Position numbers and translations under genes: made by a program | The notes under the pieces: generated by a model | What the model was told of the DNA's origin: nothing | Database searches by the model: none | What the model saw: the letters and a program-made list of their open reading frames with translations, nothing else | Assembly (NCBI GenBank): GCA_001910725.1 | Contig: MJGA01000004.1 | Location: forward strand, 62,001-126,000 | DNA from: Phanerodontia chrysosporium | Lineage: Eukaryota; Basidiomycota; Agaricomycetes; Polyporales; Phanerochaetaceae | Direction of reading: 5' to 3' | DNA: 64,000 bases | Shown: positions 30,253-40,285 of the stretch, piece after piece | Layout of the letters: every line of letters begins with the position of its first letter | Numbering within the stretch: position 1 is the first letter of the stretch

Positions 30253-31722
30253 ACAATACTCAGCGGAGTGTGTGCTGACGGTTCAGTCTGGCATTGAGGC
30301 AGTGTATGGCCGTGTGCGTGAGGGCCTCCGAGTGCAAGTCGGCGGCGACGGCCGTCCTTCGTAGCGCCATCAGCGCCATCAGTGCGCCACCAAGCTTGCA
30401 CTGCACATTGGCACGCTCACGCAAGGAGAGCACAGTTGTTAGATACTAGGAATACATTTGTATGTCTACACTGCTGTGGTAGCCTGCACCCCAACCTTGT
30501 TCTTCGTCCTTGCGTTGGGACCGCGCTTCTTGCCTTTGTCCTTGCGGGGCTTCTTGGCAGGTTGCTGCGGAGCGCCGTCGATCGTGAATGCGGCCTCGTG
30601 AGTGCGCGCGAGAGTAGTTGCTGCTGCTGCTGCTGCTGCTACGTCAGGCGTGGTACCAGGTTCAGAGGCCTCGGTCAAGGGAGTAGGCCCTAGGGCAGAA
30701 GGTGGGATGTTCTCTTCATTGTGCTGCTCGTTGACGGGTGCTGCACAGAAGCGGGTGTGGCCGGTCCGCCAGGCGTTGTAGAGGGTCTTGAGCTCGGCCA
30801 TGCTGTTGAACCTTCCAGGAGCTTGGAATACCGGGAGGGGCCAGTTCACAATGACGAGACCGTACTTCTCTGTGATAGCGGTGTCAAAGCTCTCGTAGTT
30901 CATCTTATTAACACAATAAGGACGAGCAGCCTCTCCTAGCATATCATCAGCAGATTTAATAGAGCGATGTGAGGACACTCACGGAGGGCGTTGAGGATCA
31001 GACTGCCGACCTTGTGCTTCAGTTCAAGGAGATCTTGAAGTGCAGTCTTCTTCGCGCCTGCGTGACAACGGATCTGATGATAAGGATCATGAACGCAAAC
31101 TGACGAACGTACCCGAGACACCCGAGAGAACAAACGACTCCAGCTTTCCGACATAGCGCCCGAATTCCATGTTGAATGTCAGCTGGAAGAAGTCGTCCAG
31201 CATCTCATCCGTGGACCATGTATGCGGGGCCATGTAGTCACTCTGATCCCCGCGCACACTTCCTATGAAGATGTGCATGCCGGTCCGCTCGTGGAGGGCC
31301 CAAGCCTGCAGTTTCCATCAGCTTATGCGCTCCCGCTGAGGAATGTAGGGACGCACCTCGCGTTGCAGCTTCTCGAGCGTCCCACGGCTGTCGTGGAAGC
31401 AGCTGATGGCAACGTTGTGCGGTGCGTACTTCTGATTCTGCCGACGATCGCTGAGTCTCTTCACGTCATCCTTCGTGTATTCAGAACGCTCCTCCGCCGT
31501 CATCGCCTTCCATTTCTCGCTGAGCAACGCGGAGTAGTTCCCGGCTCGCTCGCGCAGTTCACCTTGTCCCGCTTTTTCTGTGGACGACGTGTCAGTATTG
31601 TAGACTCCATGATAATAGATGATCACCTTCGTTTAACCGTCGTGTCTCCATTGACAAGAACGCGTTCCAGGTGCTGACTTCCCGAGATGAGTCGGCAATC
31701 TTGCTTTGCTGCATTAGAGTTT

Positions 31723-32322
31723 TGTCACAGTTTTTCGTCTTAACCCTTAGGGTTAGGGGCAGCAGGTGACAGAAGCGATTACTCCGAACTGTGACATGCA
31801 GAAGCGCTGGAGTGACAGCCCTAGGCTCGGGGCTGGTCACGTGATACGGCGGTCACGTGATGCGCACACGTGCGGTATCCCAGGGTCACATGGTCGAAGG
31901 TCTAGAAGCAGGCAAGGGTCTGGAAGCGCCGAGACACTCCGGAATGGACTAGAAAGTCCTGGAGGTCTCTGAACAGGTCCGGACAGTGCTGGAACGTTCT
32001 GGAGGTTTCTGGGACATCGTAGGAACATTTAGGAACGTGTAGGAGAATGTAGGAATGCCTGTAGGGCACTAGCCAATAGCGTAGTAGGTATTAGATAGCT
32101 AGGACCCTGAACACCGGTCCCTGGGGACCTGGTACACATGTATATAAACCCTGAGGGCTGGGGGTGCCTCCCCAGCTTCAATCTCATCGCATCTCGCCTC
32201 TCTAGTCTCTATACCTCGTCTTCAAGCTTGGCTACACCCTTTGTAGTCCAAGTAAACCTTTGCCAGTGAGTATTGCTGGTTGGTTTGGTGTATAGGCGCT
32301 AGGGCAGCGCATTTTTGTGATA
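31723..32322 (+). repeat. 5' LTR of chromovirus
   Basis: 600 bp, begins TGTCACAGTT and ends TTTTTGTGATA, so it lacks the usual CA end. I read it as identical to 39224-39823. U3 holds three CACGTG E-boxes (31838, 31854, 31867), a telomere-like inverted repeat at 31741-31755, a GAA-n2-TTC site near 31991, and a series of GTAGGA repeats near 32018-32070. A TATATAAA box is at 32141. Confidence 0.95.
32141..32184 (+). promoter_or_regulatory. LTR core promoter and predicted transcript 5' end
   Basis: TATATAAA lies at 32141-32148. Thirty-three bases downstream, at 32174, begins AGCTTCAATCT, the exact reverse complement of the primer-binding site. The distance fits a TATA-directed start, so the RNA probably begins at or near 32174. 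A 7-bp inverted repeat (GCTGGGG/CCCCAGC) lies just upstream. Confidence 0.7.
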
Positions 32323-32324
32323 GA

Positions 32325-32335
32325 AGATTGAAGCT
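32325..32335 (+). other. Primer-binding site, self-priming type
   Basis: AGATTGAAGCT begins two bases after the 5' LTR. It is exactly complementary over 11 bases to the predicted first 11 bases of the element's own RNA (32174-32184); pairing does not extend on either side. Tf1 and related elements prime reverse transcription with the first 11 nt of their mRNA, and the two-base gap suits removal of a dinucleotide by integrase. I saw no TGG start typical of a tRNA-primed site. Confidence 0.75.
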
Positions 32336-32629
32336 AGCCAACCTACTCCACCTTTGGTGGCCTAGGTTATTGCTTTGGGTTCTGGGGGGCTTGTTTGAAC
32401 AAGTGCTTTTGCGCTTTGTTCAGTTTTCTGCCGATCCACAGGCGTAAGTGGGCACTATAGTACCTTTTTAGGTACAGACAGGGGAACGTGGTGTAACCCA
32501 CCTCAGAGGGCTTTGCCTGCGGACGAGTAACCCCTGTTGTAGTGCTGGACTAAGGGTGTAATACCCTGTCCAACCAGTTTTAGCTGCGTGGCGTGGAAAC
32601 CCGCAGTAATACCCCTTTCTCTTCGTTGA

Positions 32630-33445
32630 GGGTTGGCTGGCAGGAAAGCCTTGCGCTTTGCCTGTGTGGAGAAGTTTTCTGGCTTGTGTACACAGGCTGA
32701 CCCGTGTTTACTAGTGCCTAAAGCTGCTAGGAACCGTTTTGTCCTTGCTAAGGACGAGAGCTCTGGCAAACCCTTGCTTGAGCGCATCAAGATCTCGAAC
32801 CTTCACCGCTTCAAAGACGTTGGGAAGCCGCGCCCTGCGTACAAACCTCGCACTACACCCTACACCCCTGTCCCTGGTCGTCGTGAAAGGCTTGCTCGTG
32901 AAGTAGACTTGAACGACTTCAAGCACCAGCTTCAGCTCGAAGACTATCGCAACGAACAGTGCAAGCGCCGCCTACTCGATCGCATCGCGAACGCCCCTCC
33001 CCCTCTACCCCTCATCGAACGTATTGAACCTCCCCCTACTCCCCCTATCGAAGTCAAACCCATTCCCAAAGACCTTCGCTTTCACACCAACACTCAGGTC
33101 CATCAGCTGCGCGACTACGGACGAAAGTTCAACGGCACCCTTAACCACTTGGGTCCGTTCTTTCAGAAGCTAGACGAGCAGCGTTTTCGAGTTGGGTTGA
33201 CTGAACACGAGCTCTACACCTTGGGCTTGTTCAAGGAGAGGTTCGACAACATTCGCAAACACCTTCAGACCATCGTCGAGACGAAGGAGTACACCACGAG
33301 GGAGTGGAAGAAGATTTCGAGGGATTTGAAGAAGGCAGGCGCACATAGCTTCGCTGAGCTTAAGCCACGCTTCGCTGAGCATTGCAGGGAGCTGATTCAG
33401 GAGTTGGGTGAAGATTGGTTGTTTTTGGAGAAGAACCTCGATTAG
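32630..33445 (+). CDS. Methionine-free leader ORF (ORF0) of chromovirus
   Basis: An open frame of 271 codons, from just after a TGA at 32627 to the TAG at 33443, with no ATG codon in it. Composition is protein-like: basic N-terminal third, a proline-rich centre with ERIEPPPTPPIEVKPIP, and a long helical C-terminal part (HELYTLGLFKERFDNIRKHL, HSFAELKPRFAEHC). Codon choice resembles gag. No ATG exists in any frame between the predicted transcript start and gag, so if translated it must use a near-cognate start such as the TTG at 32633 or another route. It lies in a different frame from gag, 29 nt upstream. I recognise no domain. Confidence 0.6.
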   Translation, partial: GLAGRKALRFACVEKFSGLCTQADPCLLVPKAARNRFVLAKDESSGKPLLERIKISNLHRFKDVGKPRPAYKPRTTPYTPVPGRRERLAREVDLNDFKHQLQLEDYRNEQCKRRLLDRIANAPPPLPLIERIEPPPTPPIEVKPIPKDLRFHTNTQVHQLRDYGRKFNGTLNHLGPFFQKLDEQRFRVGLTEHELYTLGLFKERFDNIRKHLQTIVETKEYTTREWKKISRDLKKAGAHSFAELKPRFAEHCRELIQELGEDWLFLEKNLD

Positions 33446-33474
33446 TTTTTGTATCTGCGCGTTTTTGAATCAAG

Positions 33475-35055
33475 ATGTCGCTCAATTCAAATCCTGTTGA
33501 CTTTGGTTTGCGTTCTGCTGCGAGTTCAAGTGGTATGGACCCTTGGGGAGCGTTAGAACTCGGCTCTATGGCTGAGGGAGGCCCTACCCCAGTTTTGGCC
33601 GCTGCGTCGCTTTCGACCTCTTACGAAGAGTATAGCCAGTCATGGGTACAAGCCGCTCAGGAAGGACTGACTCCTGGCGACTTTAAGGCCCTCGTTGACA
33701 GCCTGGGTAACTGGGTAAAGGCTGAGATAGCTCAAGTAAGGTCGGAAATGGGTTCAGAAGTCCTTCGCTTGAAGGAAGCCCTTCGCAAACGCAAAACTGA
33801 GGCCAAGACACTTCAGGAGCAGATAGACACTCTTGAGCAGACTAGACAGCACTTGTCTGCGCAGATAGCAGAGGCTCAAAACCAAAATCGCGTTTTGCAG
33901 AACGCTATGCAGGTGCTGAAGCAGGAGAACGAGAGCTTGAAAGTGTTGGTTCAGCAAGGCACTAGTGGAGGCAACGTTGGGTTGTCTCAGTCTTTGTTCC
34001 CTACCATGAAGGAGCCTGACACCTTTAATGGTGATAAGGCTAGTAAGCTGGATGACTGGCTCGAGTCGATGGCACTCTGGTTGCGCCACCGTGGCGTAAT
34101 GGACGACGAAAAGAAGATAGAGACGGCGATGACTTACCTGCGAGGTTCAGCAAAGAAGGTCATGCAAGAGTACTTCGACAAGGTGGCAGACTCAAAGCCC
34201 CTTGGTACTTGGACCAACTTTGTGAACGAACTCCAGAAAGGATTCCAACAGACCGACAAGAAGGACAGGGCAAGGGCAGAGTTTGAGCAGCTTGTCAGCA
34301 AGAAAGGAACGAACGAGAAGACTTTCAATGAGTTTGCTGCTCGTTTCCGTTCGCTGGCTCGCCAAACTGGCTTCTCCAACGAGGAACTGTTGGTCAAAGC
34401 CTATGCCCATACCCCTCGTGCCGCCGCCGATGTACTGGCAGCCCGTGGTCGTGCTCAGTGGGCTACGACCTGGGATGGTTGGTTGAAGGATGTTCAGGAG
34501 ATTCTGCAGGATCAACGTCTCTTGACGGGCACCGTACTCTCTGGACAGCCTCAGTCGTCGAAAGACCCTGACGCTATGGATGTCGACGCCTTGAAGAAGG
34601 GCTCAGCCCAGGGCAAAGGCAAGACAGCCAAAGTTCAGAAGGTTGCCATGTCGTTCGAGGAGGCGAAGAAGAAAGGCTGCTGCGCTCAGTGTGGAGGCAA
34701 AGGCCACATCGCCAAGGAGTGTCCATCGAAGAAGAACAACTCAGGTTCTTCGACGTCGTCGAGTAAAACCACCAATGCACCGGTGGCCAGTTCATCAAAG
34801 GCTTCGTCTTCAAAGGGAAAGGAGAAGGATAAGGGCTCTCGCCACACAAAGAACAGTGTGCGCGAGGTGTACGCCAGTGACTCGGAGAGATTCCAGGAGG
34901 TAGCCTCTGACGAGGAATCGAGCTCAGATAGCTCAGAAGAAGAAGATACCCCCAAGACCAAGCAAAAGAAGAAGTCGTCTTCAAAGGAGAAGGCGCAGAA
35001 GATTAACCGCGTGGTGTTCTCAGACGATGAGGATTTTCTGCAGGGACCAATGTAG
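33475..35055 (+). CDS. gag: Gag of chromovirus
   Basis: 526 residues, intact. The start is the first ATG of the predicted transcript, with A at -3. A leucine-heptad coiled coil spans about residues 85-165. A retrotransposon-gag capsid-like region follows (DTFNGDKASKLDDWLESMAL, YLRGSAKKVMQEYF, FNEFAARFRSLARQTGFSNE). A zinc knuckle CAQCGGKGHIAKEC (CX2CX4HX4C) lies near residue 402, and the tail is serine/lysine/glutamate-rich. It would form the virus-like particle and bind the RNA. The stop overlaps the open pol frame by 25 nt. Confidence 0.93.
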   Translation: MSLNSNPVDFGLRSAASSSGMDPWGALELGSMAEGGPTPVLAAASLSTSYEEYSQSWVQAAQEGLTPGDFKALVDSLGNWVKAEIAQVRSEMGSEVLRLKEALRKRKTEAKTLQEQIDTLEQTRQHLSAQIAEAQNQNRVLQNAMQVLKQENESLKVLVQQGTSGGNVGLSQSLFPTMKEPDTFNGDKASKLDDWLESMALWLRHRGVMDDEKKIETAMTYLRGSAKKVMQEYFDKVADSKPLGTWTNFVNELQKGFQQTDKKDRARAEFEQLVSKKGTNEKTFNEFAARFRSLARQTGFSNEELLVKAYAHTPRAAADVLAARGRAQWATTWDGWLKDVQEILQDQRLLTGTVLSGQPQSSKDPDAMDVDALKKGSAQGKGKTAKVQKVAMSFEEAKKKGCCAQCGGKGHIAKECPSKKNNSGSSTSSSKTTNAPVASSSKASSSKGKEKDKGSRHTKNSVREVYASDSERFQEVASDEESSSDSSEEEDTPKTKQKKKSSSKEKAQKINRVVFSDDEDFLQGPM

Positions 35056-38000
35056 AGTCTGCGACATCTGGTCCGTTTTTAGATTTCCTTTACCCTCCCG
35101 ACTCAGTAGAATGTATTAGATCAGTTTTGGAATCGAGAAAAGTCTCTAGTTTGCCCTCTAAATCGAGCTTTATCGTTCCAGTAACTTTGAGTCAGGGTAA
35201 GGAAATCAGAGTGCAGACTACCGCGCTGGTTGATTCAGGGGCCTATGCTGTGTTCATTAGCCATCGCTTCGTCAAGAAGCATAAGCTGAAGACGAACCAG
35301 CTGGCCAGGGAGATACGCGTTTACAACGCAGATGGCTCCAGGAACAAGTGTGGCAGTATTGAGGAGTACGCTTGGCTCGACGTAGCCGTAGGGGACCATG
35401 TCTCCAGACAAGCATGCCTCATTACAGATCTGGGTGGAAAGGACATGTTCCTCGGCTTTAGCTACTTGAAGAAGCATAATCCCGAGATAGATTGGGATAA
35501 GGGCGAGTGGAAGTACTCCAGATGCCCAGATTCTTGTCGCTTTACCAGCCACAAGGCTCAAGTAGCACAAGCAGAGCTCGAAGAACCTATGGATGAGGAC
35601 TTCGAGGAGGAGGAAGAGGAGCCTTGGCTCCAGTGGGTCGACCCTTCCATCCCAGATGGCCGCGTTTTGGCATTAACTTGCCGGAAGATCGCAGCGATGT
35701 GCAGTATTCGTTCGCTGGAGGGAATCGAGGGCTGGGAGCAGCTTGTCCCTGCACAGTATCAAGACTATGGGGACGTGTTTTCGAAGCGTGCAAGCGAACG
35801 GTTACCCGTACGAAAGCCTTACGACCACGCGGTCGAGTTTATCGACGGAGCTACCCTACCTCGACCAGCTCGTAATTACTCGCTGTCGCCAGAAGAGAGG
35901 AATTCTCTGGATGAGTGGATTCAGGAGAATCTCGCCAAGGGATACATCAGACCAAGTAAATCCCCGCTGGCAGCACCAGTCTTTTTCGTGAAGAAGAAGG
36001 ACGGTTCATTGCGCTTGGTGCAGGACTACAGAAAGCTGAACGAAGTCGTTAAGAAAGACCGCTTCCCTATACCCAAGATCTCAGACCTTATAGATCGACT
36101 ATCTAAGGCTAGTATATACACCAAGATTGACCTTAGATGGGGGTATAACAACGTCAGAATCAAGGAAGGAGACGAGTGGAAGCTGGCCTTCATCACACCT
36201 TTCGGTTTATACGAACCTACAGTGATGTTCTTCGGCCTCAGCAATGCACCAGCAACCTTTCAGCGCATGATGAACCATATTCTCGACGATCTGATTCGAG
36301 AAGGGCATGTCATGGTCTACCTAGACGACATTCTCATCTTCACGAATGACTTGGACCACCATCGGCGATTAGTTCGTGAGGTATTGCAGCGGCTACGCGA
36401 CAACGACCTGTTCGCTAAGCCAGAAAAATGCTTCTTCGAGACGGATAGCATTGAATACCTCGGAATGATCATCAGCAAGGGGTCGGTTCGGATGGATCCA
36501 TCGAAGGTAGATGGCGTTTTATCTTGGCCCATACCCAAAAGGGTCAAAGATGTCCAGGCCTTCCTGGGTTTTGCTAACTTCTACCGACGGTTTATTCGAG
36601 ACTTTGGCAAGATTGTTCGCCCATTGTCAGAGCTTACCCGCAAAGGCAAAGAGTGGGAATGGGGGCCTGAGCAGCAGGATGCCTTCGATACACTCAAAAG
36701 AGCGTTCACTACTGCGCCTATTCTCAAGATTCCAGACGACGAGCACCCTTTTAGGCTCGAATGTGATTCGTCAGACTTTGCTACGGGGGCTGTACTTGAG
36801 CAATTGGGCGAGGATGGCCTTTGGCACCCTGTCGCGTTTTACTCCAAGGCGCTAGGCGTACACGAGCGCAACTATGAGATATACGACAAGGAGATGCTAG
36901 CCATCATCCGCGCACTGAAGGAATGGCGCCACCACTTGGAGGGACACCCTCTACCATTCGACATATGGTCAGATCACCAGAATTTGACCTATTTCCGCAA
37001 GGCACAAGACTTGACGAGACGTCAAGCACGTTGGAGTCTTTTCCTCACACGTTTCCACTTCAAGTTAGAGCACAAGCCTGGAAAGACGATGAAGCGGGCT
37101 GATCCAATGTCCAGGAGGCCAGATCATGAATTGGGGGTGGATTGCGACAATCGTGAAAAAGTCCTTTTGAAGCCAGAATATTTCGCGATTCGAGCCATGC
37201 AACCAACCCATTCATCGATAGTGGACGATAGCAAACTGCTAGAAAGGATCAGAAAAGCCCTGCTGGACGACAAAGTCACCAAGTCGTACAAAGATCTGAT
37301 GTTGAAAGGACCAAGAGAGTTCGGGAAGGACTTAGCGGAATGGCACCTCGAGGACGGGCTACTACTGCACCGAGGCAAGGTGTATGTGCCCAAGGACGAC
37401 AAGATTAGGGCGGATCTACTCAAGTTACACCACGACTTCCCTGGGGCTGGACACCCTGGACGATGGAAGACGTTGGAGTTGCTGTCGCGCAACTACTGGT
37501 GGCCAGGAATGTCGGTTTACGTCAAGAAGTACGTCGCAGGCTGCGAAGTCTGCCAGTCGCATAAAAACGTCAACCAGAAGCCTGCTGGCCTGCTACAACC
37601 GAACGAGGTTCCGTCGGAACCCTGGGAGATAATCTCATGCGATATGATCACGGACTTGCCTGAGTCGGACGGTTACAACGCTATCTTCGTAGTCGTTTGC
37701 CGCTTAACCAAGCGAGCACATTTCCTCCCCATCACCAAGGAGTTTTCAGCCAAGGATCTGGGAAATTTGCTCTATGAGCGTGTTTGGCCTTTGCACGGCC
37801 TACCCAGACAGATCATTTCGGATAGGGGAACGCAGTTCTCCGCAAAACTCTTCCAGGAATGGTGCAGACTCTTGGGGATCAAGTCAGCAATGACTACAGC
37901 GTTTCACCCTCAGGCGGACGGTCAGACGGAGCGAGTTAATCAGTCATTGGAGCAGTATCTGCGCTGCTACACAAGCTTCAGGCAGGACGACTGGGCGTAC

Positions 38001-39188
38001 CTTTTGCCCTCTGCCGAGTTTGCGTACAACAACCAGGCGCATGAAAGCACCAAGAACTCGCCATTCTTCGTCGAATATGGCCGTCATCCACGCATGTTCC
38101 CAGAGCAGGACCGTGTTACAAGGTTGTCAGAACTGGACGACTGGACGAAGCTTAGACAGGAGGCCCAAGATCAGGCGAAAGCCGCGCTCATGCTGGCTGC
38201 AGAGCGAATGAAGTGGTACTACGACCAGGGTAAATCAGAACCCTTGTTCAAGGTCGGAGACCGTGTTTGGCTTGACGCAAAGGATCTGAACCTTCGGGTT
38301 CCCTCCAAGAAACTGGCACCAAAGCGAGTAGGCCCTTACGAGATCGTAGAGCAGCTGGGACCGGTCACCTTCAAGCTGAAGTTACCAGCCCATGTGAAGA
38401 TTCACCCGGTCTTCCACGCAAGCAAGCTCACGAAGCACGTCGAGGATGAGGTTGCCAATCGCACGCGCAAACCCCTACCACCCATTCGTGTGGGTGATGA
38501 CGAGGAGTACGAGGTCGAGCAGATCGTAGATGCACAGCCAGACTCTAAAGGCCGTGTTATGTACCGAGTACGGTGGAGAGGCTACGATGAGCATAGCGAC
38601 ACATGGGAATACTTGCCCAATCTCAAGCACGCTATGGCGAAGGTCAAACAATTCCACAAGAAATACCCAGATGCGCCGAGGGCAATTTCCCTTCTGCAAC
38701 GCCACCACGACGAGGAGGATGAGTTTTTCGTGCGCGAACTCGCGCTACTCCAATCTTGGGGAGCAGACGACCAGTTCGAGGTCGAGCTCATGAACAAGGA
38801 TGCAAAACTTCCCTCACGTGGCTCGCCAGAAAGCGCAGGGTTGGATCTTTTCATCACGGAAGACCTTACGCTCAAGCCCCATGATCGCAAGCTAGCGCCA
38901 ACTGGCCTTCGAATGTGTACTCCACCAGGTACCTACGCTCGAGTCGCACCACGGAGTGGCCTCAGCCTCAGAGGCATCGACATAGGAGCAGGCGTTATTG
39001 ACCGAGATTATCGAGGAGAGCTCAAAATTCTACTCATCAACAACTCGCCCGACACCTTTACATTCCACAAGGGTGATCGTGTCGCTCAACTCGTGCTCGA
39101 AAGAATCTCCTACGCCGAACCAACTCCGGTTTCTCGCCTCGACTCAACCATTCGCAGCAGCGATGGTTTTGGCTCCACTGGTATTTAG
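35031..39188 (+). CDS. pol: Pol polyprotein of chromovirus with C-terminal dUTPase
   Basis: An open frame of 1,385 codons in the -1 frame relative to gag, opening at 35031 inside gag. It has no ATG before the protease, so it is presumably made by a -1 frameshift. Domains in order: aspartic protease (DSGA at 35231), reverse transcriptase (YLDD at 36318), RNase H, integrase with HHCC zinc finger (near 37430-37560) and catalytic D, D, E. A chromodomain follows (38507-38669: YEVEQIVDAQ, YRVRWRGYDEHSDTWEYLPN). A dUTPase (about 38780-39188) then shows all five motifs: AGLDLF, PRSGLSLRGI, GVIDRDYRGEL, RVAQLVL, SSDGFGSTG. The chromodomain should guide integration to chromatin; dUTPase would limit uracil in the cDNA. 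Confidence 0.95.
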   Translation, partial: GFSAGTNVESATSGPFLDFLYPPDSVECIRSVLESRKVSSLPSKSSFIVPVTLSQGKEIRVQTTALVDSGAYAVFISHRFVKKHKLKTNQLAREIRVYNADGSRNKCGSIEEYAWLDVAVGDHVSRQACLITDLGGKDMFLGFSYLKKHNPEIDWDKGEWKYSRCPDSCRFTSHKAQVAQAELEEPMDEDFEEEEEEPWLQWVDPSIPDGRVLALTCRKIAAMCSIRSLEGIEGWEQLVPAQYQDYGDVFSKRASERLPVRKPYDHAVEFIDGATLPRPARNYSLSPEERNSLDEWIQENLAKGYIRPSKSPLAAPVFFVKKKDGSLRLVQDYRKLNEVVKKDRFPIPKISDLIDRLSKASIYTKIDLRWGYNNVRIKEGDEWKLAFITPFGLYEPTVMFFGLSNAPATFQRMMNHILDDLIREGHVMVYLDDILIFTNDLDHHRRLVREVLQRLRDNDLFAKPEKCFFETDSIEYLGMIISKGSVRMDPSKVDGVLSWPIPKRVKDVQAFLGFANFYRRFIRDFGKIVRPLSELTRKGKEWEWGPEQQDAFDTLKRAFTTAPILKIPDDEHPFRLECDSSDFATGAVLEQLGEDGLWHPVAFYSKALGVHERNYEIYDKEMLAIIRALKEWRHHLEGHPLPFDIWSDHQNLTYFRKAQDLTRRQARWSLFLTRFHFKLEHKPGKTMKRADPMSRRPDHELGVDCDNREKVLLKPEYFAIRAMQPTHSSIVDDSKLLERIRKALLDDKVTKSYKDLMLKGPREFGKDLAEWHLEDGLLLHRGKVYVPKDDKIRADLLKLHHDFPGAGHPGRWKTLELLSRNYWWPGMSVYVKKYVAGCEVCQSHKNVNQKPAGLLQPNEVPSEPWEIISCDMITDLPESDGYNAIFVVVCRLTKRAHFLPITKEFSAKDLGNLLYERVWPLHGLPRQIISDRGTQFSAKLFQEWCRLLGIKSAMTTAFHPQADGQTERVNQSLEQYLRCYTSFRQDDWAYLLPSAEFAYNNQAHESTKNSPFFVEYGRHPRMFPEQDRVTRLSELDDWTKLRQEAQDQAKAALMLAAERMKWYYDQGKSEPLFKVGDRVWLDAKDLNLRVPSKKLAPKRVGPYEIVEQLGPVTFKLKLPAHVKIHPVFHASKLTKHVEDEVANRTRKPLPPIRVGDDEEYEVEQIVDAQPDSKGRVMYRVRWRGYDEHSDTWEYLPNLKHAMAKVKQFHKKYPDAPRAISLLQRHHDEEDEFFVRELALLQSWGADDQFEVELMNKDAKLPSRGSPESAGLDLFITEDLTLKPHDRKLAPTGLRMCTPPGTYARVAPRSGLSLRGIDIGAGVIDRDYRGELKILLINNSPDTFTFHKGDRVAQLVLERISYAEPTPVSRLDSTIRSSDGFGSTGI

Positions 39189-39223: not shown

Positions 39224-39823
39224 TGTCACAGTTTTTCGTCTTAACCCTTAGGGTTAGGGGCAGCAGGTGACAGAAGCGATTACTCCGAACTGTGACATGC
39301 AGAAGCGCTGGAGTGACAGCCCTAGGCTCGGGGCTGGTCACGTGATACGGCGGTCACGTGATGCGCACACGTGCGGTATCCCAGGGTCACATGGTCGAAG
39401 GTCTAGAAGCAGGCAAGGGTCTGGAAGCGCCGAGACACTCCGGAATGGACTAGAAAGTCCTGGAGGTCTCTGAACAGGTCCGGACAGTGCTGGAACGTTC
39501 TGGAGGTTTCTGGGACATCGTAGGAACATTTAGGAACGTGTAGGAGAATGTAGGAATGCCTGTAGGGCACTAGCCAATAGCGTAGTAGGTATTAGATAGC
39601 TAGGACCCTGAACACCGGTCCCTGGGGACCTGGTACACATGTATATAAACCCTGAGGGCTGGGGGTGCCTCCCCAGCTTCAATCTCATCGCATCTCGCCT
39701 CTCTAGTCTCTATACCTCGTCTTCAAGCTTGGCTACACCCTTTGTAGTCCAAGTAAACCTTTGCCAGTGAGTATTGCTGGTTGGTTTGGTGTATAGGCGC
39801 TAGGGCAGCGCATTTTTGTGATA
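39224..39823 (+). repeat. 3' LTR of chromovirus
   Basis: 600 bp, no difference seen from the 5' LTR. A purine-rich GAATTGGGGGTAA just upstream is the likely polypurine primer site. The AGTTT target repeat follows at 39824-39828. Confidence 0.95.
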
Positions 39824-40285
39824 AGTTTGATAGTAGTACTTGGGCGGGTGGTCGCCGAGCTCTGCGGAAAGCTCCTCAGCGATAGTCCAGACCTTCTTCA
39901 AGGCAGCCTCGATCGCTTTTTCATGTTTTTCCTTGACTTCTTGTCGGCGTTGTGCCTTTGCTGCGACCTCGGCGGCGGTGAGTTGCGGAACATCGCGCTT
40001 CTTGGTGCGCTCGCGATAGCTTGTGCGCGGCGCGGTCTGAGGCTCTCGGCGGGAAAGGTTCGGGTACCGGCGAACCTCAGCTGTATGTTGCGGCAGCGCA
40101 CTGCTAGTGGGCGCTGCAGGTAGTGCGGGGGATGCTTCAGCAGGCGAGGACCCTGACATCGGACTCTGTAGACAACGTAGAATGGAAAGACCCAGGCCAT
40201 CGTAAAATTGAGCAGGCGCGTAATCACGATCATACAATCACATTGTCATTGTCATCTGTCAGCACGAGAGCTACAAGTACGTCAA

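What the first reader, a model, noticed from the sequence alone, without database searches (positions are those of the whole stretch)
32174..33474. 1,301-nt retrotransposon leader with no ATG in any frame, carrying a 270-codon methionine-free ORF
I read every line from the predicted transcript start (32174) to the base before the gag start and found no ATG in any frame; about 20 would be expected by chance. Inside lies an open frame of 271 codons (32630-33445) with protein-like composition and gag-like codon choice, yet no Met. This suggests selection against AUG over the whole leader. The purpose could be to let ribosomes scan 1.3 kb to gag, to allow ORF0 translation from a near-cognate codon, or both. 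A coding sequence purged of AUG in all frames is, as far as I know, not a described feature of chromoviruses.
Basis: seen in the sequence. Interest (0 to 1): 0.9.

Follow-up and report, generated by a model that had tools for sequence, protein, structure and literature searches.

The report
Gene whose start codon splicing makes
In a fungal retrotransposon the 1.3-kb leader before gag has no ATG in any frame although it holds a conserved 243-residue gene, the closest relatives of that gene almost completely avoid methionine, and splicing is predicted to assemble the missing start codon, so one RNA stretch would be a ribosome-passable leader when unspliced and likely a gene when spliced.

Summary
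Window 32174-33474 has no ATG in any frame (9 expected from dinucleotides, 19 from base composition), nor has it in 29 other copies read. The start 32174 is supported: its first 11 nt are exactly complementary to the site after the LTR, as in Tf1 self-priming. ORF0 is a real gene: it has relatives in other fungi and metagenomes and a pN/pS of 0.17. Most relatives begin at codon 29 of the open frame (GTG, 32714). In a 12-member clade ORF0 has 2 internal Met against 40 simulated (minimum 14); sister sequences and a sibling family in the same genome keep Met. The purge is therefore real, long-lasting and clade-specific.

My reading goes further. The GTG lies at a predicted 3' splice site (CTGAC...CTAG|TG), and a U5 donor (GCCA|GTGAGT, 32266) would join to it as GCC-AUG, the first AUG of a spliced RNA that encodes ORF0 and lacks the primer site. 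Unspliced RNA would keep the AUG-free leader for scanning to gag. No RNA data were available; the splice step is inferred. Eleven loci with an apparently frameshifted ORF0, at least three beside a full-length Pol frame, suggest ORF0 is not strictly needed in cis.

The parts
31718..31722 (+). 5-bp target-site duplication AGTTT (partner 39824-39828)
   Evidence: sequence read; flanks both LTRs
31723..32322 (+). 5' LTR, 600 bp, identical to 39224-39823
32141..32148 (+). TATA box TATATAAA, 33 nt before the predicted transcript start
   Evidence: sequence; named by resemblance
32174..32184 (+). predicted first 11 nt of the transcript (self-primer AGCTTCAATCT)
   Evidence: exact reverse complement of 32325-32335; present in 30 of 30 copies
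32174..32265 (+). predicted exon 1 (92 nt, no ATG, ends in GCCA)
   Evidence: inferred
32266..32271 (+). predicted 5' splice site GTGAGT in U5
   Evidence: 30 of 30 copies; the 21-mer around it found at 227 places with up to 2 mismatches, reversed control 0
32266..32714 (+). predicted 449-nt intron; contains the primer binding site and the conserved leader motifs
   Evidence: inferred from signals, no RNA data
32325..32335 (+). self-priming primer binding site AGATTGAAGCT, 2 nt after the LTR
   Evidence: sequence; 30 of 30 copies; all 11 nt paired with RNA nt 1-11 in the predicted fold
32430..32451 (+). 22-nt leader block GCCGATCCACAGGCGTAAGTGG shared exactly with the sibling copy L069:226-247
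   Evidence: 132 places with up to 2 mismatches, reversed control 0
32585..32605 (+). predicted hairpin; pair C32587-G32603 is T-A in the same 8 of 30 copies
   Evidence: may be a single inherited double change
32697..32714 (+). predicted branch site CTGAC (32697-32701) and 3' splice site CTAG (ends 32714)
   Evidence: spaced pattern exact at 87 places genome-wide, reversed control 3
32714..33445 (+). ORF0, 243 aa, first codon GTG in DNA (AUG predicted across the junction A32265|TG32715), no internal Met
33475..35055 (+). gag, first ATG of the unspliced RNA
   Evidence: Retrotrans_gag PF03732
35031..39188 (+). pol open frame in the -1 frame: protease, RT, RNase H, integrase, chromodomain, C-terminal dUTPase
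39224..39823 (+). 3' LTR

Best explanation
The AUG-free leader is likely a dual-use segment: unspliced genomic RNA would be scanned from the cap through 1.3 kb without AUG to gag, while splicing of a predicted 449-nt intron (32266-32714) would join ...GCCA to TGCC..., create the first AUG and thereby switch on ORF0. Shown by sequence and computation: the AUG absence, the conserved coding ORF0 with its homologous start at 32714, the clade-wide loss of Met, the complementarity of the predicted RNA 5' end to the primer site, and splice-like signals at exactly the place needed. Inferred: that the intron is spliced, that the junction AUG is used, that ribosomes scan the unspliced leader, and that AUG removal was selected to keep gag translatable. 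The spliced RNA would lack the primer site and the conserved leader motifs, so it would be an mRNA only, much as retroviral subgenomic RNAs lose their packaging region (general knowledge).
For: Zero ATG against 9 expected. ORF0 is coding: pN/pS 0.17 in 30 copies (6 N, 14 S) and homologs at 69, 54 and 51% identity. In the 22-row alignment 19 of 21 homologs begin at the codon-29 column; P0014 begins two residues earlier and P0021 later. Postia/Rhodonia gene models mostly read MPK there, while this family and both Obba rivulosa models ('partial') have Val. Clade of 12 ORF0s: 2 internal Met against mean 40.5, minimum 14, in 1000 simulations; Trp control 32 observed against 27.9. With 14 members at their own lengths and Met frequency cut to 1.2%: 3 against 23.7, minimum 7. 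Four sister sequences have 9 Met in 874 residues against 3 in 3100, Fisher P=1.3e-4. Signals: A|GTGAGT and CTGAC-N9-CTAG|TG; in silico joining gives a first AUG at nt 92 in context GCCAUGC and an intact 243-aa ORF0. Of 2303 GTGs in the window, 4, this one included, have both an acceptor-like and an A|GTRAGT donor-like signal. Donor, acceptor and primer site are invariant in 30 of 30 copies, while the rival donor GTAAGT at 32444 is altered in 8 of 30. In the one sibling copy read an AG also directly precedes the ORF0 ATG (ACACAG|ATG), its ORF0 holds Met, and a strong acceptor-like TACTAAC...CTAAG precedes its gag ATG: perhaps a different way round the same obstacle. Partial copies gained ATGs (7 in 65 differences over 3 fragments) where the 30 copies gained 0 in 44 variants, one-sided P=0.023.
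Against: No RNA or protein data. The donor has A, not G, at -1 and is itself paired in a predicted stem; the intron is long for a fungus (general knowledge); a second donor-like site at 32444 would give CUG instead. The leader folds strongly (32174-32720: z -5.2, RNA nt 1-11 paired with the primer site), which would hinder plain scanning. Off-frame ATG absence in ORF0 is only mildly unusual under its own codon usage (1.85 expected, P=0.12) though P=0.0095 under gag+pol usage. First codons of the metagenomic relatives cannot be read (M may stand for GTG), and no DNA of a relative outside this genome was obtained. Eleven loci have an ORF0 span of 812 nt split over two frames, three of them in line with a stop-free 1385-codon Pol, so ORF0 is dispensable in cis or acts in trans.
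Confidence: 0.6

Rival explanations
1. ORF0 is translated from the unspliced RNA at a near-cognate codon (the conserved GTG at 32714, or one upstream in the open frame), and AUG removal protects this weak start and gag.
For: GTG is at the homologous start position; the frame is open for 28 codons upstream; AUG-free leaders favour weak starts (general knowledge).
Against: GTG is a poor eukaryotic start (general knowledge) and has C at -3; the 28 upstream residues are in none of the 21 homologs aligned, and one Obba model has only two residues before the Val; it does not explain the branch/acceptor-like sequence ending exactly at the G.
Confidence: 0.2
2. Splicing occurs but from the donor GTAAGT at 32444, making CUG (AGGCUGCC) the ORF0 start.
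For: GTAAGT is embedded in the 22-nt block shared exactly with the sibling copy; an intron of 271 nt is less extreme.
Against: 8 of 30 copies alter this GTAAGT (7 to GCAAGT, 1 to TTAAGT) while the U5 donor is invariant; gives a non-AUG start.
Confidence: 0.08
3. ORF0 protein is no longer made; only its RNA is kept as an AUG-free leader so that ribosomes reach gag.
For: Eleven loci appear to carry a frameshifted ORF0 and three of them have a full-length Pol frame.
Against: pN/pS 0.17, similar to 0.22 for the first 225 nt of gag; amino-acid conservation across species.
Confidence: 0.07
4. Chance or compositional bias; no selection against AUG.
For: AT dinucleotides are scarce here, lowering the expectation from 19 to 9; the 30 copies alone are not decisive (P(0)=0.19).
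Against: 0 of 2000 shuffles; 0 of 1000 simulations reach the clade's Met scarcity, Trp unaffected.
Confidence: 0.02

Closest known systems
dUTPase-bearing basidiomycete chromoviruses (PosPlaTy3 families of Postia placenta; PMC2864245, section 5 and passages read)
   Same: Ty3/gypsy with chromodomain; PosPlaTy3-4 has dUTPase at the C-terminus of Pol, as here; the Figure 3 legend lists an additional ORF of unknown function; Postia proteins are ORF0 homologs
   Different: the section read says nothing of an AUG-free leader, a Met-free ORF or splicing; unfused Postia/Rhodonia ORF0 models hold 2-5 internal Met
Tf1/sushi self-priming elements (PMC7175516, passages read)
   Same: first 11 nt of the RNA complementary to the primer site beside the LTR
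   Different: the passages seen mention neither an ORF before gag nor an AUG purge
Ogre plant Ty3/gypsy elements (as described in PMC1142308, passages read)
   Same: long region with a large ORF between LTR and gag
   Different: a 550-codon ORF of unknown function; homology to ORF0 not tested; [quoted passage not shown]
BARE1/BARE2 of barley (PMC3735527, passages including part of the abstract read)
   Same: separate RNA pools, spliced subgenomic RNA, and a defective subfamily that uses products of the other in trans
   Different: recalled as Ty1/copia; splicing makes a stop codon after Gag rather than a start codon

Membership tests
Chromovirus (Ty3/gypsy LTR retrotransposon) | LTRs, target-site duplication, gag and pol with RT-RNase H-integrase order and chromodomain | tested here: met
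Self-priming (Tf1-type) element | RNA 5' end complementary to the primer site next to the LTR | tested here: met
   11 of 11 nt, 30 of 30 copies; pairing in the predicted fold; the start site itself is predicted, not mapped
Self-priming (Tf1-type) element | RNase H cleavage after nt 11 and priming | not testable with these tools
   needs biochemistry
dUTPase-bearing basidiomycete chromovirus | dUTPase domain in Pol | tested here: met
   PF00692, E 3.9e-38, Pol residues 1257-1384
Met-free ORF0 clade (defined here) | homologous ORF0, near-absence of internal Met, start at the MPK position | tested here: met
   position before gag seen only in this genome
Retroelement with spliced subgenomic RNA | donor, branch and acceptor signals flanking a removable leader | tested here: inconclusive
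   signals present and invariant in 30 of 30 copies; no RNA
Retroelement with spliced subgenomic RNA | spliced RNA observed | not testable with these tools
   no transcript data reachable
Ogre-type elements with an ORF before gag | homologous ORF upstream of gag | not tested
   no Ogre sequence compared

The most novel reading that the evidence does not exclude
One RNA stretch has two lives: as the 5' leader of the genomic RNA it is purged of AUG in all frames, and as a gene it gains its only AUG from the splice itself (A|UG), so splicing is the on/off switch of a retrotransposon protein that has given up methionine throughout a clade.
Probability: 0.6. Interest if true: 0.88.

Novelty: new variant of a known kind. 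Interest (0 to 1): 0.78.

Why it matters
Retroelements must use one transcript both as genome and as messenger. If right, this clade solves the conflict by removing every AUG from a coding region and letting the spliceosome assemble the start codon, which would make RNA fate and protein identity depend on one base at an exon end. It also gives a natural test of how far ribosomes scan and of what long-term selection against methionine costs a protein, and may explain why the two Obba gene models are labelled 'partial'.

Tried and rejected
Searching IMG/VR for relatives by protein profile and by the 22-nt leader block gave none. Rfam gave one sub-threshold match outside the leader. AlphaFold models of ORF0: the first poor (pLDDT 58), the second better (76.6, pTM 0.47, helices only), but no PDB or viral match with E <= 0.001, so ORF0's biochemical role stays open. 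Pfam has no family for ORF0. A first acceptor pattern had the wrong spacing (11 N; 3 matches) and was repeated with 10 N. Inverted repeats did not reveal the sibling's primer site in L069:1-260. Considered and set aside: gag made from a spliced RNA in this family (no YTNAY branch-like site in 33430-33474; and it would not explain the AUG purge); ORF0 expressed as the full 271-codon frame (upstream 28 residues not shared). Literature searches that showed me no splice-made start codon or AUG-purged leader in a retroelement: (listings; section 5 and passages of PMC2864245, passages of PMC3735527, PMC7175516, PMC3248453, PMC1142308; one phrase search in PMC5902531, no match). Only an open-access library was searched, so this is not proof of absence. 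I recall, without a source read here, that some insect env genes borrow a start codon from the gag region through splicing.

Full report
Observation. The window 32174-33474 has no ATG in any frame; the next ATGs are at 32138 and 33475, the gag start. Base composition predicts 19, dinucleotide content 9.1; none of 2000 dinucleotide-preserving shuffles was ATG-free. The two halves are each unusual on their own (5' non-coding part 0.3% of shuffles, ORF0 part 0.4%). For ORF0, swapping synonymous codons gives 3.9 off-frame ATGs under gag+pol usage (P(0)=0.0095) but only 1.85 under ORF0's own usage (P(0)=0.12), so part of the off-frame absence is carried by codon choice.

The element. Two identical 600-bp LTRs (31723-32322, 39224-39823) are flanked by AGTTT. 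Gag and Pol carry Retrotrans_gag, protease, RT, RNase H, integrase, chromodomain and a C-terminal dUTPase; the Pol frame is -1 to gag with a 25-nt overlap. Window 32174-32184 (AGCTTCAATCT) is the exact reverse complement of 32325-32335, two bases behind the LTR. [quoted passage not shown] This supports 32174 as the RNA start, and the predicted fold pairs the two stretches over all 11 nt.

Copies. Searches of the host genome found 44 leader matches and 126 ORF0 matches, both lower bounds. I read the 30 best ORF0 copies (L009-L038; L009 is the window's own). All 30 have 0 ATG in the leader, and all 30 keep the primer site, the U5 GTGAGT and the CTAG|TGCC site; the GTAAGT at 32444 is altered in 8 of 30. 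The extra G at 32384 is in the window copy alone among the 30. ORF0 variants are 14 synonymous to 6 non-synonymous, pN/pS 0.17, against 0.22 for the first 225 nt of gag. A hairpin pair C32587-G32603 is T-A in the same 8 copies. Against 44 leader variants 1.66 ATG-making ones were expected and none seen, P(0)=0.19. Fragments of other copies that lay in the fetched loci: 47 differences with 5 ATGs (L038), 15 with 2 (L013), 3 with 0 (L019); a fourth (L034) had an indel, no ATG, and was left out of the test. Fragments against the 30 copies: one-sided Fisher P 0.023.

Relatives. ORF0 has no Pfam family. Three protein searches found 3, 13 and 31 matches at cut-offs 10, 1 and 0.1, among them Obba rivulosa, Postia/Rhodonia placenta and Phanerochaete sordida models and many metagenomic proteins. 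Of 21 homologs aligned, 19 begin at the codon-29 column of the window frame (mostly MPK...); P0014 begins two residues earlier, P0021 nine later. P0030, P0038 and P0039, not in that alignment, begin differently. Where the start residue is not written M it is Val: in this family (P0001) and in both Obba models, which are labelled partial. For other metagenomic proteins a leading M may be a translated GTG, so their start codon is unknown; P0021, whose M sits on a position where close relatives have Val, Leu or Ile-type residues, hints at this (inference).

Loss of methionine. I put 20 ORF0s in a tree, leaving out near-copies and fragments. A clade of 12 (ultrafast bootstrap 97) has 2 internal Met in all; 1000 simulations along its tree from the Met-free window protein gave 40.5 on average and never fewer than 14, while Trp was not depleted (32 against 27.9). 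That run counted simulated tips at full length, slightly too long for the shorter members. The repeat at each member's own length, with the fragments P0024 and P0037 added, gives 3 Met in 3100 residues against 43.8 expected, or 23.7 (minimum 7) with Met frequency cut to 1.2%. An earlier four-member test gave 0 against 9.2, with 0 of 1000 simulations at zero. Four sister sequences have 9 Met in 874 residues and three sibling-type ORF0s 3 to 7 each. The 2 or 3 Met of the clade lie in P0014, P0015 and P0024. Off-frame ATGs of the relatives could not be counted, since no DNA was available.

Sibling family. One copy (L069, Pol 68% identical) was read: its ORF0 is 25% identical, starts with a genomic ATG at L069:593 directly after ACACAG, and has 6 internal Met; the 1521 nt hold 22 ATGs, its ORF0 and gag starts included. 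Its RNA start is unknown. Its gag ATG follows TACTAAC...CTAAG|AAACA, a strong acceptor-like sequence. So this lineage may skip ORF0 by splicing to reach gag, while the window's lineage purged AUG. This rests on one copy and on signals only. Both share the 22-nt block GCCGATCCACAGGCGTAAGTGG exactly.

Mechanism proposed. The GTG at the homologous ORF0 start is preceded by CTGAC and CTAG, so that an acceptor would leave TGCC... at the exon start. A donor in U5, GCCA|GTGAGT, would supply the A. The joined RNA has its first AUG at nt 92, in the context GCCAUGC, and encodes 243 residues. Among 2303 GTGs of the window, both strands, 4 including this one have both kinds of signal within the ranges tested. 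The spaced acceptor pattern occurs exactly at 87 places in the genome against 3 for the reversed control; I did not reconcile each place. The predicted intron holds the primer site, the 22-nt block and the covarying hairpin, so the spliced RNA could not serve as a genome. Scanning of the unspliced leader, use of the junction AUG and the splice itself are inferences.

Against. There is no RNA evidence. The leader part 32174-32720 is strongly folded (z -5.2), and the donor is paired in that fold. Eleven ORF0 loci span 812 nt, by coordinates one base short, with the match split over two frames; three of them (C56:47034+, C102:15171-, C102:1096893-) lie in line with a stop-free 1385-codon Pol. Their sequence was not read. 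Such copies would depend on ORF0 from other copies or not need it; BARE2, which lacks Gag, is packaged by BARE1 (PMC3735527).

Known or new. The closest things known are dUTPase chromoviruses of Postia (PMC2864245), Tf1 self-priming, Ogre with an ORF before gag, and retroelements with spliced RNAs. [quoted passage not shown] My searches showed no AUG-purged coding leader and no splice-made start codon in a retroelement, within an open-access library only.

Noticed in passing
32430-32451 and L069:226-247: A 22-nt non-coding leader block (GCCGATCCACAGGCGTAAGTGG) is identical in copies of two families whose ORF0s are only 25% alike; 132 places in the genome with up to 2 mismatches. Function unknown; perhaps packaging, or a donor.
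   Followed up: partly
32585-32605: Leader hairpin with a compensatory C-G to T-A change in the same 8 of 30 copies.
   Followed up: partly
G000 C44:154018-154829, C64:283609-284420, C56:47034-47845, C102:15171-15982, C102:1096893-1097704 and 6 more: Eleven loci with an 812-nt ORF0 split over two frames (apparent one-base frameshift); in at least three the Pol frame is still full length, suggesting help in trans.
   Followed up: partly
35031-35055: gag and pol frames overlap by 25 nt with pol in the -1 frame, so a -1 frameshift or similar is likely needed.
   Followed up: no
32639-32796: No variant in 30 copies over 158 nt spanning the predicted branch site, acceptor and first ORF0 codons, in a stretch that otherwise varies at about 4% of sites.
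   Followed up: no
G000 C102:1291007, C64:242729, C80:2769, C99:26759, C58:1499556: A possible third ORF0 family in the same genome (27-30% identity to P0007 over part of it, E about 1e-3, open frames of 234-245 aa).
   Followed up: no
35031-39188: dUTPase domain fused after the chromodomain at the end of Pol.
   Followed up: partly
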